A stretch of DNA of 64,000 nucleotides from assembly GCF_003144195.1 (NCBI RefSeq), contig NW_020289999.1:379544-443543 (forward strand), in the 5' to 3' direction. The first letter of the stretch is position 1, and the number at the start of each line of letters is the position of its first letter. Of this stretch, positions 9,819 through 57,425 are shown piece by piece. This DNA comes from Ceraceosorus guamensis. Its lineage: Eukaryota; Basidiomycota; Exobasidiomycetes; Ceraceosorales; Ceraceosoraceae. The position numbers and the translations under genes are program-made. The notes beneath the pieces were generated by a model, which saw only the letters and a program-made list of their open reading frames with translations, was not told the origin of the DNA and searched no databases.

Positions 9819-12800
9819 TCAAGCAGTGACGCTTTGTATGCTATCCGGAAAGCTTCGGACGGGGGGGACAGAAGAATTTGGAGAGCGAGCTCCGATCGTG
9901 CTCGATGGGGTGGGGCTAGCAAACGCTGGCGGGCCGTTCGGATCATCGCGAGGGAAGAATGTGGAAGGAGGCCTGGGCGAAGATTCGGACCTGTTGGAGA
10001 AGAAGCTAGGGGAAGCGGCGTCGGTTGCAACGGGAAGCACACCACCTCGACTTCCGGTGCGCTTGGCTACGGGCATCGAGGTGATCTGAGAAGACAGGGA
10101 GCCGCTAGAGGAAGATGCAGAGGTAACGCCTGCCGGGAACGATGCGGGCATGCCGAAATTGCTAAAGGAGGTCGCGTCCAACACCGAGGCTGTGGCCATC
10201 AGGCTCAATGGGCGCAGTTTGCTGCTCTTTGTCCCACCTCCACTGGCGCTTGACCAGTCTGTCGCGGGGCTGTTGCTTGCGCGTGATCCGTGCAGATGCG
10301 CAGGCTCGGGAAGAGACGGCACTGGTGGCGGTCCTGAAGGCTTCATCGTCGATGCCGACGTGCTCGTAGTCAGCGGGTCTTGTGGTGTGAGTGGTGGTGT
10401 CAAGGGCGCGACCAGGGTGTTGGTAGGCAAAGCGCTGCTCGACACTGCGACACTGAGATGATATGGTTTACGAGATGACAACGACGATTGAGACGGGGGC
10501 ATCGACGTGGCAACATTGCGGAGTGCCAAGCTGGTGGAGGCATTCTTGCGATCCAGCGCAGCATTCTGCTGCACCCGTTGCAAAAGACGTGCACGGTGAT
10601 GCTGTGCATCTTCGAGCGCCTCTCCAATAGCGTCCGTTCCACCTGTCACACAAGAGCTGGTGATGGATATGGTGTCTGCATTATAATCGGAACGAGGGCT
10701 CGCGAGAAGGGCGCTCTGTCGCGATGTCGTATTCTGCTGAGGACTGGAGCTCCATGTCGCGCCGTTGGTCGCAGTGCGTGGCGAGAGCGCTGACGATGAC
10801 ATGTTTGGTGAAGTGGCCGAGACCGGCGTAGCGGCGACAAGACTGGGACGGCGCGAGAGCGAGTCCGAGAAGCGTGATTGAAAGGTAGCCAGGGGGCTCA
10901 TGCGGCCCGTACTAGGATGCTCTGCAGCTAAACTAACACTCAGCTCCGACGGAGAGATCGCTGGAAGTGGTCTTTGAATGCCAGTAATTCCCTGCTCTGC
11001 CTCCCACTTAGCCGGCTGCATGATGGGCGACGCCGTTGAAATGACTTCGCTTTCTGGCCTGGCCCGGGACGTGCTAGAGGTGCGCCCGGAGTGGACACTG
11101 GACCTGGATACTGCAAGCTCATCAATGCCCAAGCCCGCCCGTTCGAGCACGTTCGCGTCGTGGCGTGAAAAGCTGGATCTCTGCTGAGCTCTCGTCCGAT
11201 TCAGACTTTCGATGGAGGGACGGAGCATGAAGGAGACCGCGGCTGCTCGAGCATCCGGGGAGTCGCTCGTCGATACAGCCCACTCTTCGCGAGTGTAGGG
11301 GCTGCTATTTGCTGGTGAGAAGTCGGGCTTGGGCGAGAGTTTCGGAGTGCAGACCACGGCGCTGCTTAGCCTTGCTTCCTCCTGCGCTCTTGCTTGCTGC
11401 TCCATCACCTTGCTGATGCTTGGAGCGACATTGATGCTCTCACGAGGTTGAGGAGGTGGGCAACTGGAAGGTGCTCGGCCTCGCTTGAGACGCGCAACCA
11501 AGGAACTGCCAAAGGATTGCTTTTCATTGGCTGGACTCGTTGGTAGGAAGCCTTCATTTCCAAGCTGAGCCAAGAGCGGACTAGCAGGGGGCGAGATGGA
11601 GCTGCTAAAGCTAGAACGAGAAGCACTTGCCTCGCCAGAATGGTGAACTTTCAGAGCATTGACGTCGACTGAGCTCGACGAAGCAGCGGATGCTTCCGTG
11701 GGCTCGTCGGGGAAGAATGCCCGATGATACGGCGTCATGAAGGGTACCATGTTCGGCAGAGCGCTGGGTTGCGGGGCGCTGATACTGGTTCTACTGCGTG
11801 TATCCAAGCTCGATCGAGCATCGTCGCTGTTGGAGATGATGATCGCTGATGGCCTCTTCGCAGATAAATTGACAGGCTCCGGGTCTTCGCAAATCAGCGG
11901 CAAAGGTTTCCGAGGGTCAGCTGCAGGTACAGGTACACGTCGAGGACCTCCGGACGGTGCGATCTTGGAGATGGCAACGCTCTTGGCCGCTTGTGTTACG
12001 ACTGCACCGTTCAGATCGTTCTCCTCATCGGAATCCGAGCTTGCTGAGTGCGTCGAGCTCGGGGGAGTGCTGTAGAACGTATTTGCATGCGCGGTGGTGC
12101 TTCCGCTGATGTCTTCGCTCGGTCTGGTCTCGACGCTGGAAAGCGTAGCAGAGTTGTCAGATTCGGATCGCGCGATTGTCGCTACACCACCCATGGTGGG
12201 TACCACCGTCAGGCTCGCATCGACGAGACTTCCCTCGCTGCCGCTCGCATTTGAGCCGTGCCAGACAGATGATCGAGCTTCTGAAAAGATGGCAGCGCCT
12301 AGGGAGAGGCTTGACTTGCTGCTGCTGCTCTTGCCAAGGCCGAGACTTAATGGTCGGAAGGCTCCAGGCACGTGCGCCACGCTAGAGCTACCATTCGAGG
12401 TCAAGGATGGCAGCTTTGTCATGGGCAGGCCGATAGCAGACACACCTTGTCCTGCAGCAGATCGAGCATAATTGCCCTGGTGCGGACCACGGACGCCAAA
12501 TTGGGATGTGGAGAGCGAAGGGAGAGGCGGAAGAGCTTCCGGGTTGGAGTCGTGACGGAAAGTTCTGTTAGATTCGCCCGCGGACATGTAGACACTGCTT
12601 CCCGTAGACGTGGTTCCACCGCGAGACGTGCGCGAGTCGATCGAGGGCCTGAATGGTGCTTCTGCCATTGGTGTCAGACTCATGTCTGAACGGCTTGGCA
12701 TCGGTGGGAGAGCATCTCTAGATGGCGCGAGGCTGGTCATTGACATGACAGGCGGCTTGCTTGAATCAAAGTGCCCGGTGATCTGTTGGAAAATGACGGA

Positions 12801-14228
12801 TGTGCGGCTGCGAGACAGGGCGCTGGACGCTGCTACAGATGTGCGGGACGGCTGTCTCGCAGCTTCCATGTCTGGAGACGAGCGGGTGTTGCGACCAGAG
12901 AATGCATTCTGCAGCGTGGTCGCAAGCCACATTGACCGTTCGATCTCAAAGTCCAGCTCATCTTCGAGGTCCAGCTTGATACCACCCTTTGCGATGCCGC
13001 CTTCCGGGCTCTCGCGCTTCTCGAGATCCGCCGCAAGGGCCAAGACTGGAGTGTAGCTGCCCTCGTCGGCTCGATTCTGCTCCCCGAGTGCCTGCGCGCC
13101 AGGTTCACGGTCAAATTCGGCGTCGGAAGAGATGTCCAGTGCAGGGCGAGGTAGCGTGGGCAGGTCGCCCAGCGAACGTATGAGCGTGCTAGGAATGGCG
13201 ACCCTGTTGACTCGTGCTGTCCGCATATGTGCGGGCACCTCTCCCATCTGATTCTTGACAATGGCGATAGGCAGCTCGGGCAGAGCGGGCGGAGGGCTCT
13301 CCGTGTCTCTACGGCGCGGTGCGCTGTGTGAGCGTCGGCGTGTCCCTGCGGACGAGCTGGCCGGCATAGGACCCGAGCTGCCGCCGGAGCTGGTACTGGT
13401 AGAGTATCCTCCCAAATCCCACCGACTGCTGTCTGGCCCATGCACCGAGGGACCAAGTGGCTCTACAACAGCCATCGGTCTGACCCCACGCGTTCCAATC
13501 ACCCTTCGCTGGTTCTCTGAGATGTCCTTGAGATCCACGCCGTTGGCTACGGCATGACGAGGCGCAAACTTTAGTGTCGGCGCGCTAACATTCAACTTGC
13601 TCTTGGTAGTGCCACGTGCTAATCTTCGCTTGCGGTACTGAATGAGAACGTAGCCTCCCAGGCCAAGCGCAACTATCAAGGCTCCCAAGCCGACGGCGAG
13701 AATGGCCAAGCTGGATGTAGACGCGCCACTAAGGGTGGTATTTGACGAGGCACTGGCCGCGGTGCCTGCCGTGGCTGACCGACGAGAGAGGGGATGAATG
13801 GAGTAGACATTGTCGAAGAAGTGCTTGGCGTCGAGGAGCCATAACGGCCCGTTTGGTTGGACCATCGGAAGTTCACTGCGAGCGCGATCGGGTTGTCTGA
13901 CTGTTGAGCCAGTCTGGGCGTAGAAGACCTGGATTTGTGTGGATATAGCAGACTTACAATGCATAAAAGTCGTCGGGGGGATACTGCGCTTGTGAAGAGT
14001 TGAAAGAGTGTCGTGACTTGGTCGATCGTGATATGAGTTTGAGCAAGCGGCGACGTCGGTCGAGGTGATTGGCTTCGTCGATCTGCGGCTAAGAGGATAT
14101 GGATGAGAAGAAGAGACCGGATGAGTTGGGCAAGAGCAGTGAGCACCAAGGGACAACGAAGAAGACCGAATGCGATCGAGAGGGCGGAGAAGGTGGTGAG
14201 AGAGTAGGTCAGGAAATGGTGTGGGCAT
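9819..14228 (-). CDS. Single-pass membrane protein with very long Ser/Pro-rich tail
   Basis: I do not recognise the family. The clear part is 13875 down to 9819: a short extracellular stretch, a Ser/Thr-rich linker (SASSNTTLSGASTSSL), one membrane segment (SLAILAVGLGALIVALGLGG), a basic stop-transfer YRKRR, then about 1,300 residues of low-complexity Ser/Pro/Ala tail. The topology resembles fungal wall-stress sensors or signalling mucins, but no Wsc or mucin repeat is seen. The N-terminus is uncertain. The frame stays open up to an ATG at 14228, but that stretch looks non-coding. A good GTAAGT donor at 13957 and a CTCGCAG acceptor ending at 13876 define an 82-nt intron; splicing it joins a different upstream frame and gives YPPDDFYAFELPMVQPNG, which looks like an ectodomain. 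No signal-peptide exon was found with confidence, so the true start may lie upstream of 14228. Confidence 0.6.
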   Translation of the reverse strand: MPTPFPDLLSHHLLRPLDRIRSSSLSLGAHCSCPTHPVSSSHPYPLSRRSTKPITSTDVAACSNSYHDRPSHDTLSTLHKRSIPPTTFMHCKSAISTQIQVFYAQTGSTVRQPDRARSELPMVQPNGPLWLLDAKHFFDNVYSIHPLSRRSATAGTAASASSNTTLSGASTSSLAILAVGLGALIVALGLGGYVLIQYRKRRLARGTTKSKLNVSAPTLKFAPRHAVANGVDLKDISENQRRVIGTRGVRPMAVVEPLGPSVHGPDSSRWDLGGYSTSTSSGGSSGPMPASSSAGTRRRSHSAPRRRDTESPPPALPELPIAIVKNQMGEVPAHMRTARVNRVAIPSTLIRSLGDLPTLPRPALDISSDAEFDREPGAQALGEQNRADEGSYTPVLALAADLEKRESPEGGIAKGGIKLDLEDELDFEIERSMWLATTLQNAFSGRNTRSSPDMEAARQPSRTSVAASSALSRSRTSVIFQQITGHFDSSKPPVMSMTSLAPSRDALPPMPSRSDMSLTPMAEAPFRPSIDSRTSRGGTTSTGSSVYMSAGESNRTFRHDSNPEALPPLPSLSTSQFGVRGPHQGNYARSAAGQGVSAIGLPMTKLPSLTSNGSSSVAHVPGAFRPLSLGLGKSSSSKSSLSLGAAIFSEARSSVWHGSNASGSEGSLVDASLTVVPTMGGVATIARSESDNSATLSSVETRPSEDISGSTTAHANTFYSTPPSSTHSASSDSDEENDLNGAVVTQAAKSVAISKIAPSGGPRRVPVPAADPRKPLPLICEDPEPVNLSAKRPSAIIISNSDDARSSLDTRSRTSISAPQPSALPNMVPFMTPYHRAFFPDEPTEASAASSSSVDVNALKVHHSGEASASRSSFSSSISPPASPLLAQLGNEGFLPTSPANEKQSFGSSLVARLKRGRAPSSCPPPQPRESINVAPSISKVMEQQARAQEEARLSSAVVCTPKLSPKPDFSPANSSPYTREEWAVSTSDSPDARAAAVSFMLRPSIESLNRTRAQQRSSFSRHDANVLERAGLGIDELAVSRSSVHSGRTSSTSRARPESEVISTASPIMQPAKWEAEQGITGIQRPLPAISPSELSVSLAAEHPSTGRMSPLATFQSRFSDSLSRRPSLVAATPVSATSPNMSSSALSPRTATNGATWSSSPQQNTTSRQSALLASPRSDYNADTISITSSCVTGGTDAIGEALEDAQHHRARLLQRVQQNAALDRKNASTSLALRNVATSMPPSQSSLSSRKPYHLSVAVSSSALPTNTLVAPLTPPLTPQDPLTTSTSASTMKPSGPPPVPSLPEPAHLHGSRASNSPATDWSSASGGGTKSSKLRPLSLMATASVLDATSFSNFGMPASFPAGVTSASSSSGSLSSQITSMPVAKRTGSRGGVLPVATDAASPSFFSNRSESSPRPPSTFFPRDDPNGPPAFASPTPSSTIGARSPNSSVPPVRSFPDSIQSVTA

Positions 14229-54591: not shown

Positions 54592-55588
54592 ATTACCGCC
54601 CCTCAACGCGAGCCTGTCACAAGCAATGCTTAGCTCATCGCCTAGCTCATAATCGCTACAAGACCTTGCGCGGCGCAATGTGTACTGTCAGCTGAGTGGG
54701 TGATGGATGGAAGAGGTAGAAGCTTGGAAGTCGCAACGAAGTGCTGTGATCGAATCACGCGCGATCAAGAAGCGCATTCAAGCGCCGCTTCTTGGCGGAG
54801 CATCTCGCAGCGCGCCCTTTCCGCGGCATCCATCTCGCCGTGACGCAGTCAAACAAACATCGGCGCATAGGTGCTGTGTGCGGTCTACACATGAAGGATT
54901 CCTCCATCAAAAGGCGCTCAAGTGCTCGCGCGTTGATGGTGAAAGCACTGATCAGCCGGAGGGCGTCACATGGACAATCACAGTCAGTCAGTAAGCCATT
55001 CTGTCAGTGAGCGTATGTGCGCGCGGAGGCAAGACCATCTCTAGGTAGCCGGGCTCGCCATTGTCGACGTGGGCACGCACACACACGCTCCTCCAGGTCG
55101 ACAACTGCTATGGTCACGCCCCGCGTAGCCGCGCAATGTAAGCTCATCGCCGAAGCTGCATCTCGAGAGAAGCGTCCTGGCTCTCGGACCGCTGAGCTGG
55201 CCACTCGAAGCGGCTCCGCGCACGTTTCGATAGCAAGCAGCGCCCGTACAACACTTCCTGAGTGTGCTTCACATAGACGAAGGTACGGGGACAACAGCGC
55301 TACGTTGCCGCGCCATCCCTGTGATGTGCGCAACTCGCGGCAGCGCGCTCAGAAAGCTGTCGCACCCAGACTCTCGGATGCTGACAACGGGCGCAGCACA
55401 GTACGCTGAACATCCTGATGTGATTCATTGCATCCGAAATCTGTCCCAAGCTTCTTCATCACTTGGGCAAGATGCCACGCTCGTTGCAACTGCAAATGCT
55501 CTAGCTACCTCGGGCGTGAAGAGATCGTTGAAGCATGTCGAGGTTGAGGGAGGGTGACAGGCAGGTAGTAGGTACTGTTGCTTGGCGC
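54592..55588. other. Spacer between cofilin 3' end and RAD17 promoter
   Basis: Open frames of about 110-130 codons overlap on opposite strands at 55004-55409, but neither has family resemblance or a convincing start context. No gene is called. Confidence 0.45.
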
Positions 55589-56415
55589 TTAGTAGCCTCG
55601 AGAGCACTTCTCCTGCGTGCGCCCAGGCGTGTATGATTGTTAGCGTAGTATTCACATCAGGGGAAACGCACGTGGGAGAAGGTCAACTTACCAGGACTAG
55701 CGTCGAATAGCCATCAGGTGAGAGGCACAGGAGACAGATCTGTCAGCGCCAAGCCTTTGCTGATGGAAATGCAGCTCGCCACCTAGCCTGCTTTGTCCCT
55801 TGCCAGCTTCTACACCAATTTTGAGTTTACAAGGTCGCTTTGTTTGATTCGCTTGTCACGCGAAATGCCACAACTTACCGGCATCGTAAGTGATCTCGTC
55901 CAGATCGGTACCCTGGACTTCGACAGCTACACCAACGAGAGATCTGCGCAGAGGTTCTTTTGAGGATGCGGCAAGCATCTTTGACTTGATCCTGGCATCG
56001 TCGGGAGACCTGTAGCGCGACAATACCTCTGGGGTTAGCCATTGAGTCGAGGCGAATCTGCTCAAAGAAGCGCTCACCAGGCAATAAAGACGATCTTACT
56101 GCGCTTTCCATCATCGCCCTTGCTGAACTCGAAGTCGTAGACGGCCCAGAGGCAGTCATCAGCGGGGAGCTCCTTCAGGAATTCCTCATACTTGTCCGAG
56201 GTGCTGGTCTTGAGCACAACAATTTCGGTCTTGTCCTCGCTCAAACCATAGATGATGTACTTGGTCTTGTGTCCCAGCTTCAGCGCTTGGAACTCTTCCA
56301 AGCACTTGGGGTTGACTTTCACTCCGGATGCCTAAGGACGCAAGCACCGACACAACCACATTCACTTTGTCAGTAAGCTGACCTCCAGAGCGCTAAGTTT
56401 CTCTGCGCACGCACC
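55589..56415 (-). CDS. COF1: Cofilin (actin-depolymerising factor) with a 5-nt microexon
   Basis: It binds and severs actin filaments in the cytosol. Exons on the minus strand are 56415-56413 (ATG only), 56331-56078, 56009-55879, 55696-55692 (5 nt) and 55612-55589, giving 138 aa, the normal ADF/cofilin length. Motifs seen are [36 protein letters not shown], the long-helix region [18 protein letters not shown] and the end [20 protein letters not shown]. The last motif, which matches the usual cofilin C-terminus, needs the 5-nt exon TCCTG between a CTAG acceptor and a GTAAGT donor. Skipping it would give a different frame and an unrelated extension of about 70 residues. No other model yields the family ending. 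Confidence 0.92.
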
Positions 56416-57425
56416 ATTCTGGAGGGGTTGCTTCTGGATGCGAGCTCGTTTGCTGTGAACGCAAATGGCCAAAGAGTTTCGGAGGCGAAGGCGAGATCGA
56501 TGCTAATCACTGGACTCTAAAGCCCTTACGGATACGGAGGCTGACGAGCAAGCGCAATCGCGAATGTGTTATGGATGAAATGGGTGGTGTTATCTTTGTG
56601 CGTTCGTGTGATCAAAGCAGTGTGTGTATTTGGCGTCTTCTATCAAAGGCTCGCCCTGTATGTACAACAGCTATAGGGATGAGTTCATGCCCGTGCGGCG
56701 GGATTCACTCATCAAACGCCTCGGTTCTCATCACGAGCGCGGTGATGCGCGCAAGCCTGCAACGTCGCGTGCATGCTGGCTGAGCGCTCTGAGCATCTTT
56801 CGCGGAGAGGGGCGGTCGGGCCCAGCCACTCTGACTCACTTACTGTATAACGCATGGCGGCATACAGCAGCTGTATCATCCTGGCTGTGCGGAGGGCTGA
56901 GCGTGCGCCATTTCAGCTGGCTGATCTTGGCTCCGCGTTGCCGCGTGGCGCGTCAATCCAAAAGCAGCGGCACGTGACCAGCTGTTTCTGTCGTGGATCT
57001 GGCTCCTGCGTGCCTTGCCCTTTTTGTGGAACCTGGTCTGGCATGTGTCGAATGCGTGCATCACTCCTCATCTCTCGTAGGTGCAACAACGGGAACAAGT
57101 CAGTGGTCAAGAGTGCGACTAGATTCAGTATCATAACAACTTGCATGGCAAATTCCACGAATGAAAACATAAGTAGCGTTGGTGGACACTAGGAGGCCAC
57201 CTTCACCAGCGACAAGCCAAGCCAACCAGGCGACCGGTCTTCTTGCAAGAGTGGGAGCACATGATGAGGCGTAGTAGGCGATCACCAGAGCAGCGCGAGG
57301 TGCGAATCATGGTGTGATGGCGTCGAAGGCATTGAGCGAGCAGGGCAAGCAGGCTTTCACAGTACATACGACCAAAACATGCACATTGAGTCTTACGAAA
57401 GCCGCGTCTCGTGTTACTGATGTAT
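56416..57425. other. Spacer upstream of cofilin
   Basis: It lies between the NDUFV1 3' end and the cofilin promoter. On the minus strand, frame 57170-56913 starts MFSFVEFAMQVVMILNLVAL, which is hydrophobic but otherwise has no supporting feature. No gene is called. Confidence 0.45.

What the first reader, a model, noticed from the sequence alone, without database searches (positions are those of the whole stretch)
55589..55880. 5-nt microexon in the cofilin gene
The cofilin C-terminus YDAVLEKCSRGY can be read only if the five bases at 55696-55692 are an exon between two introns (upstream intron 55878-55697, downstream 55691-55613). The upstream exon ends in phase 1, the microexon adds exactly 2+3 bases, and the last exon resumes in phase 0 with the expected ending. 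Skipping it yields a frame with an unrelated 70-residue tail. Exons this short are rare and are usually missed by annotation software.
Basis: partly seen in the sequence, partly recalled or inferred. Interest (0 to 1): 0.8.

Follow-up and report, generated by a model that had tools for sequence, protein, structure and literature searches.

The report
Five-base exon in fungal cofilin gene
The cofilin gene of this smut-related fungus needs a five-base exon between two ordinary introns to make a normal protein end; the reading holds up well on sequence, but the public protein already contains it and even shorter fungal exons are in print.

Summary
On the minus strand a complete cofilin gene (417-nt CDS, 138 aa) runs 56417-55589, and its reading needs TCCTG (55696-55692) as an exon between introns 55878-55697 (182 nt) and 55691-55613 (79 nt), both starting GTAAGT. 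Among 11,565 enumerated gene models it scores best against a cofilin profile (230.1 bits; next 222.7; best one-intron model 221.3). Homology alone is not overwhelming: 4 of 200 shuffles of the intervening sequence also allow the same score. A Val-Leu microexon before a GTRAG donor occurs in 0.03% of 20,000 shuffles. The spliced protein equals, letter for letter, a deposited Ceraceosorus cofilin, so annotators already made this join. Of 193 listed cofilins, 10 break exactly at the upstream junction, 9 of them with Gly, as expected if a phase-1 GT intron there is left unspliced: the upstream intron is probably old and shared. Whether the 5-nt exon itself is shared could not be tested, and there is no RNA evidence. 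Verdict: a real, probably constitutive microexon by inference; a new example of a known kind; modest interest.

The parts
56415..56417 (-). cofilin exon 1: coding part is the start codon ATG alone
   Evidence: joins to GCATCCGGA to give MASG, a start also seen in homologues
56332..56414 (-). intron 1, 83 nt, GTGCGT...CTTAG; branch-like CTGAC about 38 nt before the acceptor
56078..56331 (-). cofilin exon 2, 254 nt
   Evidence: PF00241 match
56010..56077 (-). intron 2, 68 nt, GTGAGC...TACAG; CTAAC about 25 nt before the acceptor
55879..56009 (-). cofilin exon 3, 131 nt, ends in phase 1 (...TYDA + G)
55697..55878 (-). intron 3, 182 nt, GTAAGT...GCTAG; branch-like CTGAC (about 46 nt) and CTGAT (about 17 nt) before the acceptor
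   Evidence: position probably shared with other fungi, judged by 10 of 193 listed proteins that break there
55692..55696 (-). exon 4, the 5-nt microexon TCCTG: completes Val (G+TC) and encodes Leu (CTG)
   Evidence: protein identical to P0001
55613..55691 (-). intron 4, 79 nt, GTAAGT...CGCAG; CTAAC about 27 nt before the acceptor
55589..55612 (-). exon 5: EKCSRGY and stop; counterparts of yeast cofilin E134, R135 and R138 lie here

Best explanation
This is the ordinary cofilin (ADF/cofilin, PF00241) gene of a Ceraceosorus species, most likely C. guamensis. Its fourth coding exon is five bases long. Two complete GT-AG introns, each with its own strong donor GTAAGT and branch-like site, are removed on either side, most likely each recognised across the intron rather than across the exon, so that no exon-defining contacts are needed on five bases (inferred). 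Inclusion is probably constitutive: 5 is not a multiple of 3, skipping gives a 62-residue foreign tail, and keeping the downstream intron gives ...YDAVLVS-stop; both forms lose the C-terminal end whose yeast counterparts E134, R135 and R138 lie at the F-actin interface. The upstream intron appears old and shared with other basidiomycetes; the microexon probably arose when a second intron was gained five bases downstream of it (inferred, not tested).
For: Exact frame closure and canonical sites. Best of 11,565 models by 7.4 bits, and the runner-up also contains the same 5-nt exon; still best by 4.6 bits when GC donors are allowed. Val-Leu plus GTRAG donor in 0.03% of 20,000 shuffles. Only two GTRAGT sites in the gene, both used. 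Letter-for-letter identity with P0001, named for C. bombacis and in a UniRef cluster titled 'Cofilin n=2 Tax=Ceraceosorus'. P0002 from Tilletiopsis washingtonensis, another genus, ends in the same VLEKCSRGY; it is the only other one of 193 that does. Yeast cofilin aligns without a gap through SYDSVLERVSRG. 183 of 193 listed homologues carry the usual pair (mostly Val-Leu) followed by (E/D/A)(K/R) at this place (181 parsed by script, 2 by eye). cof1-22 = E134A, R135A, R138A, with reduced F-actin binding (PMC2572843, passages).
Against: No RNA evidence. In 4 of 200 shuffles some model gives the same top score and ending, and 29 of 200 reach 226 bits, so the homology argument alone is weak at about 2%. 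The deposited gene model may itself be a homology prediction, so its agreement may not be independent. A shared 5-nt exon in other fungi is untested: no fungal DNA other than the window's own genome was reached.
Confidence: 0.93

Rival explanations
1. A single intron 55878-55607 is removed instead, giving ...[14 protein letters not shown]... and a long foreign tail (189 aa in all, 60 residues after YDA); the microexon is a coincidence.
For: Best-scoring one-intron model, 221.3 bits; by chance it also begins with Val-Leu.
Against: 8.8 bits worse than the microexon model; uses a GAAG acceptor six bases downstream of a CGCAG one; loses EKCSRGY, which a Tilletiopsis cofilin has letter for letter.
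Confidence: 0.03
2. The microexon is real but regulated: skipping or downstream intron retention is a physiological switch that makes cofilin with an altered, weaker F-actin-binding end.
For: The frame-breaking length makes inclusion decisive for the C-terminus; the retained form YDAVLVS-stop is a nearly full-length cofilin. A 20-nt glucose-responsive microexon is described in Trichoderma virens Xlr2 (PMC11121469, passages).
Against: No transcript data; strong donors on both introns argue for constitutive use (inferred); in 55579-55930 no direct repeat and only one 10-nt inverted repeat were found.
Confidence: 0.05
3. The interval is a nested (twin) intron, with one intron splitting a splice signal of another and nothing kept between them.
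For: Two introns lie back to back with only five bases between them.
Against: Both introns have complete donor, branch-like and acceptor signals, and removing everything between 55878 and 55613 gives the frame-shifted 191-aa product.
Confidence: 0.01
4. The gene copy is decayed or misassembled here, so no functional ending exists.
For: None found.
Against: Every exon is intact and the spliced product equals a deposited protein from Ceraceosorus. The own-genome search scored four PF00241 places: two are exons of this gene, one is an Abp1-like gene (by eye), one is a partial match on contig C18 that I did not examine.
Confidence: 0.01

Closest known systems
One-nucleotide exon in CYP621A of Fusarium (PMC12940212; passages plus the Introduction and Discussion sections read)
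   Same: Frame-restoring ultra-short exon inside a conserved motif of a fungal gene, inferred first from phase mismatch and homology
   Different: 1 nt rather than 5; confirmed there with SRA reads; a P450, not cofilin. The authors cite exons of 2-5 bp in Arabidopsis, Drosophila and humans
Microexons in P450 genes of Phanerochaete chrysosporium (PMC1184071, passages)
   Same: Very short coding exons and small introns in a basidiomycete; shortest there 6 bp
   Different: In P450 genes; lengths 6 bp and up; there linked to possible alternative splicing
Xlr2 microexon of Trichoderma virens (PMC11121469, passages)
   Same: Fungal microexon that breaks the frame if left out; there absent from the JGI consensus model
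   Different: 20 nt, glucose-responsive switch with RNA evidence; here 5 nt, no evidence of regulation, and the ending already present in the deposited protein
Yeast cofilin Cof1 (PDB 1cfy, 1cof)
   Same: The protein aligns over residues 3-137 of 138 with yeast 4-139, including VLERVSRG
   Different: Exon structure: I know of no introns at this place in yeast COF1 (recalled, not looked up)

Membership tests
Internal coding microexon | Exon of 30 nt or less flanked by spliceosomal introns with canonical ends | tested here: met
   5 nt, CTAG before and GTAAGT after; introns 182 and 79 nt with GT-AG ends
Internal coding microexon | Needed to restore frame and a conserved motif | tested here: met
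   Best of 11,565 models; omission shifts frame
Internal coding microexon | Presence in mature mRNA | not testable with these tools
   No reads or cDNA available; indirect support from the identical deposited protein
Internal coding microexon | Conservation of the exon in related species | tested here: inconclusive
   No relative's fungal DNA found in viral contigs or genome contigs. Protein evidence supports a shared upstream intron only (10 of 193 listed)
ADF/cofilin (PF00241) | Full-length Cofilin_ADF domain above the curated cut-off | tested here: met
   137.6 bits against a cut-off of 22.4, residues 11-133, profile 1-125 of 125 (on P0001, which is identical)
ADF/cofilin (PF00241) | C-terminal charged residues matching yeast E134, R135, R138 | tested here: met
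   E132, K133, R136 align with them; role from PMC2572843 passages
ADF/cofilin (PF00241) | Actin binding and severing | not tested
   Bench assay needed
Twin (nested) intron | An inner intron interrupts a splice signal of an outer one and no sequence is kept between (definition recalled) | tested here: not met
   Both introns complete; removing the five bases breaks the frame

The most novel reading that the evidence does not exclude
The 5-nt exon is not peculiar to Ceraceosorus but an old feature of basidiomycete cofilin genes, and is the reason why annotated cofilins from Pleurotus, Tephrocybe, Fomitopsis, Gloeophyllum, Mixia and Tilletiaria fail at exactly this codon: a conserved ultra-short exon that has been silently misread in many genomes.
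Probability: 0.15. Interest if true: 0.5.

Novelty: new member of a known kind. Interest (0 to 1): 0.27.

Why it matters
It is a clean, checkable example of an exon far too short for exon definition in an actin regulator that is essential in yeast (recalled), and so a handy test case for spliced aligners and gene finders in compact fungal genomes. The codon-exact failures in 10 of 193 listed cofilins point to a recurrent annotation weak spot at this junction. It does not change what is known about the limits of exon length, since 1-nt exons are already reported in a fungus and in Arabidopsis (PMC12940212).

Tried and rejected
Searching for fungal DNA of relatives to see the exon elsewhere: two scans of viral contigs gave none, and the one scan of genome contigs gave only a bacterial, intronless cofilin from Embleya hyalina. 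The own genome has no held relatives and gives no file. Metagenome scans are capped at zero and were not tried.

One-intron, no-intron and GC-donor readings were enumerated and rejected on score. Other 2-mod-3 microexons up to 30 nt between the outer sites were listed: GCTAG at 55787-55783 gives a stop; the 8- and 29-nt options give stops; the 11- and 26-nt options ([13 protein letters not shown]) use a weaker GTGCCT donor and do not fit the family.

A duplicated donor as the origin of the second intron was considered because both introns begin GTAAGTTG; no direct repeat of 10 nt or more was found in 55579-55930, so it stays unsupported.

Protein letters of the broken homologues were looked at for traces of a microexon in retained introns; they do not decide it.

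Paper searches for a cofilin microexon: 'microexon + fungi + cofilin' 0 papers; 'cofilin gene + introns + basidiomycet' 0 papers; 'cofilin + microexon' 21 papers, 18 listed, none on a fungal cofilin microexon by title or start of abstract. Broader searches showed none either by title or start of abstract, in capped lists where many papers matched: 3 of 3 listed; 5 of 5; 10 of 10; 20 of 455; 12 of 1,175. The library holds open-licence papers only.

Dropped rows: the profile used 114 of 120 homologues; P0001 was left out as the answer itself, P0069, P0098 and P0108 for broken C-termini, P0080 and P0111 for odd N-termini. In one search candidate proteins under 120 aa were not scored. The 193 proteins are the union of two lists of the best 120 (of 236 and of 878 hits); they include P0001 itself, some bacterial sequences, non-basidiomycete fungi and unnamed metagenomic sequences. 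An earlier script pattern left further rows unmatched; by eye their ends are intact, and one search gives the final count (181 parsed intact, 2 intact by eye, 10 broken).

Full report
What is there. The minus strand of 56417-55589 holds a complete ADF/cofilin gene. Exons are 56417-56415 (ATG alone), 56331-56078, 56009-55879, 55696-55692 (TCCTG) and 55612-55589; the introns are 83, 68, 182 and 79 nt, each with GT-AG ends. The joined 417 nt translate to 138 residues ending ITYDAVLEKCSRGY. The product matches PF00241 at 137.6 bits and aligns over residues 3-137 with yeast cofilin, VLEKCSRG lying on VLERVSRG without a gap. Skipping the exon gives 191 aa with a 62-residue foreign tail, not 70; keeping the downstream intron gives YDAVLVS and a stop; keeping the upstream one gives [10 protein letters not shown] and a stop.

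Is it more than chance? All models with no, one or two GT-AG introns (35 nt or longer) and donors and acceptors in 55950-55560 were enumerated: 11,565 models, 3,004 distinct proteins. Each was scored against a profile of 114 of 120 homologues (the Ceraceosorus protein itself, three with broken C-termini and two with odd N-termini left out). The 5-nt exon model is best at 230.1 bits. The runner-up (222.7) has the same microexon with an acceptor three bases later; the best one-intron model (55878-55607) has 221.3 and the unspliced reading 216.8. Allowing GC donors gives 49,647 models and the same winner, the next at 225.5. Against my reading: in 4 of 200 dinucleotide shuffles of the intervening sequence some model reaches the same 230.1 bits, and 29 of 200 reach 226, so the fit to the family alone is about a 2% event. 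The splice signal adds the rest: a five-base exon reading Val-Leu occurs in 1.4% of 20,000 shuffles, and one followed by GTRAG in 0.03%. The gene has only two GTRAGT hexamers on its strand, exactly the two donors used. GTRAGT is more frequent in the window than in shuffles (83 against a mean of 46.8), which fits a genome with many introns using that donor (inferred). Branch-like sites stand about 17 and 46 nt (CTGAT, CTGAC) and 27 nt (CTAAC) before the two acceptors; introns 1 and 2 of the same gene have CTGAC at 38 and CTAAC at 25 nt.

Deposited data. The spliced protein is identical over all 138 residues to P0001, named actin depolymerizing factor of Ceraceosorus bombacis, whose UniRef title begins 'Cofilin n=2 Tax=Ceraceosorus' and which sits on two contigs, the longest 838,088 bases. 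A fast-evolving 1469-aa window protein is 95% identical over 79% of its length to C. bombacis CBOM_04989 on a contig of the same 838,088 bases, while the window's own copy sits on a 674,758-base contig, the length of the window's contig C4. The window is therefore not the deposited C. bombacis. A 2024 paper says that C. bombacis and C. guamensis are the two Ceraceosorus species with genomic data (PMC11687029, passages), so C. guamensis is the likely source (inferred). The public annotation therefore already contains this ending, and the remark that such exons are usually missed does not apply to it. Whether the depositors had RNA support is unknown to me: the two genome papers I tried by recalled DOI are not held.

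Homologues. Two protein searches listed 193 distinct cofilins (the best 120 of 236 hits and the best 120 of 878 hits). At the residues encoded by the microexon 183 of 193 have the usual pair followed by (E/D/A)(K/R) (181 by script, 2 by eye); of the 181 parsed, 145 have Val-Leu. Ten of 193 break exactly at the codon split by the upstream intron: P0069 Pleurotus djamor, P0098 Tephrocybe rancida, P0108 Mixia osmundae, P0157 Fomitopsis betulina (partial), P0180 Gloeophyllum trabeum (partial), P0187 Tilletiaria anomala, and four unnamed sequences (P0122, P0148, P0150, P0190). In 9 of the 10 the next residue is Gly, which is what exon-final G plus an unspliced GT gives; P0098 has Asp. None of the 193 breaks between the pair and the next two residues. 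The upstream intron position is thus probably shared across basidiomycetes, and it is hard for gene finders because what follows is short (inferred). This does not show that the next exon is five bases elsewhere; a last coding exon of about 29 nt would do the same. Tilletiopsis washingtonensis (P0002) ends in the identical VLEKCSRGY, a check from another genus on the last nine residues.

How it most likely works. Shown: canonical signals, frame closure, best fit, identity with a deposited protein. Inferred: both introns are recognised across the intron, since five bases cannot hold two sets of exon-bridging contacts; inclusion is constitutive; the microexon came about when a second intron was gained five bases downstream of an old one. 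Consequence of failure: the last exon carries the counterparts of yeast E134, R135 and R138 (window E132, K133, R136), the residues changed in cof1-22, which reduces F-actin binding and actin turnover (PMC2572843, passages; PMC5014199, passages on patch lifetime). Mis-spliced messages would therefore give cofilin without its normal filament-binding end.

Known context. Ultra-short exons are a known kind: a 1-nt exon in Fusarium CYP621A with read support, 2-5 bp exons cited there for Arabidopsis, Drosophila and humans, and an 8-nt one in Phanerochaete (PMC12940212, passages and two sections); 6-bp exons in P. chrysosporium P450 genes (PMC1184071, passages); a regulated 20-nt one in T. virens (PMC11121469, passages). 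I found no paper on a cofilin microexon in fungi in the open-licence library with the searches. This is a new, well-supported example, not a new kind.

Noticed in passing
window 56417-56415 and 56414-56332 (minus strand): The first coding exon of the same gene is just the start codon ATG, followed by an intron; several listed homologues have odd N-termini (for example P0080, P0111, P0109), perhaps for the same reason.
   Followed up: partly
P0042, P0064, P0074, P0094, P0100, P0103, P0110; L005:3001-3417 (+): Cofilins of 57-60% identity to this fungal one are annotated in Streptomyces and Embleya. The Embleya hyalina copy is an intronless 138-aa ORF on a 765-kb contig; 137 of its residues score 141.4 bits for PF00241. 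This may be gene transfer from a fungus; no tree was made.
   Followed up: partly
G000:C26:50385-50738 (L001): A second gene with a full ADF-H domain in one exon followed by a proline/alanine-rich stretch, looking like actin-binding protein Abp1 (by eye; no family search of the whole gene).
   Followed up: partly
window 55580-55589 and 55745-55754: A perfect 10-nt inverted repeat could pair intron 3 with the stop-codon region, flanking the microexon and the downstream intron; about 0.06 expected by a rough estimate of my own, not from a call, so perhaps chance.
   Followed up: no
window 9819-14228 (minus): A 1469-aa ORF without Pfam match at E 0.001. Five proteins were listed for it: itself, C. 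bombacis CBOM_04989 at 95%, and three others at 29-42% identity over 7-88% of its length.
   Followed up: no
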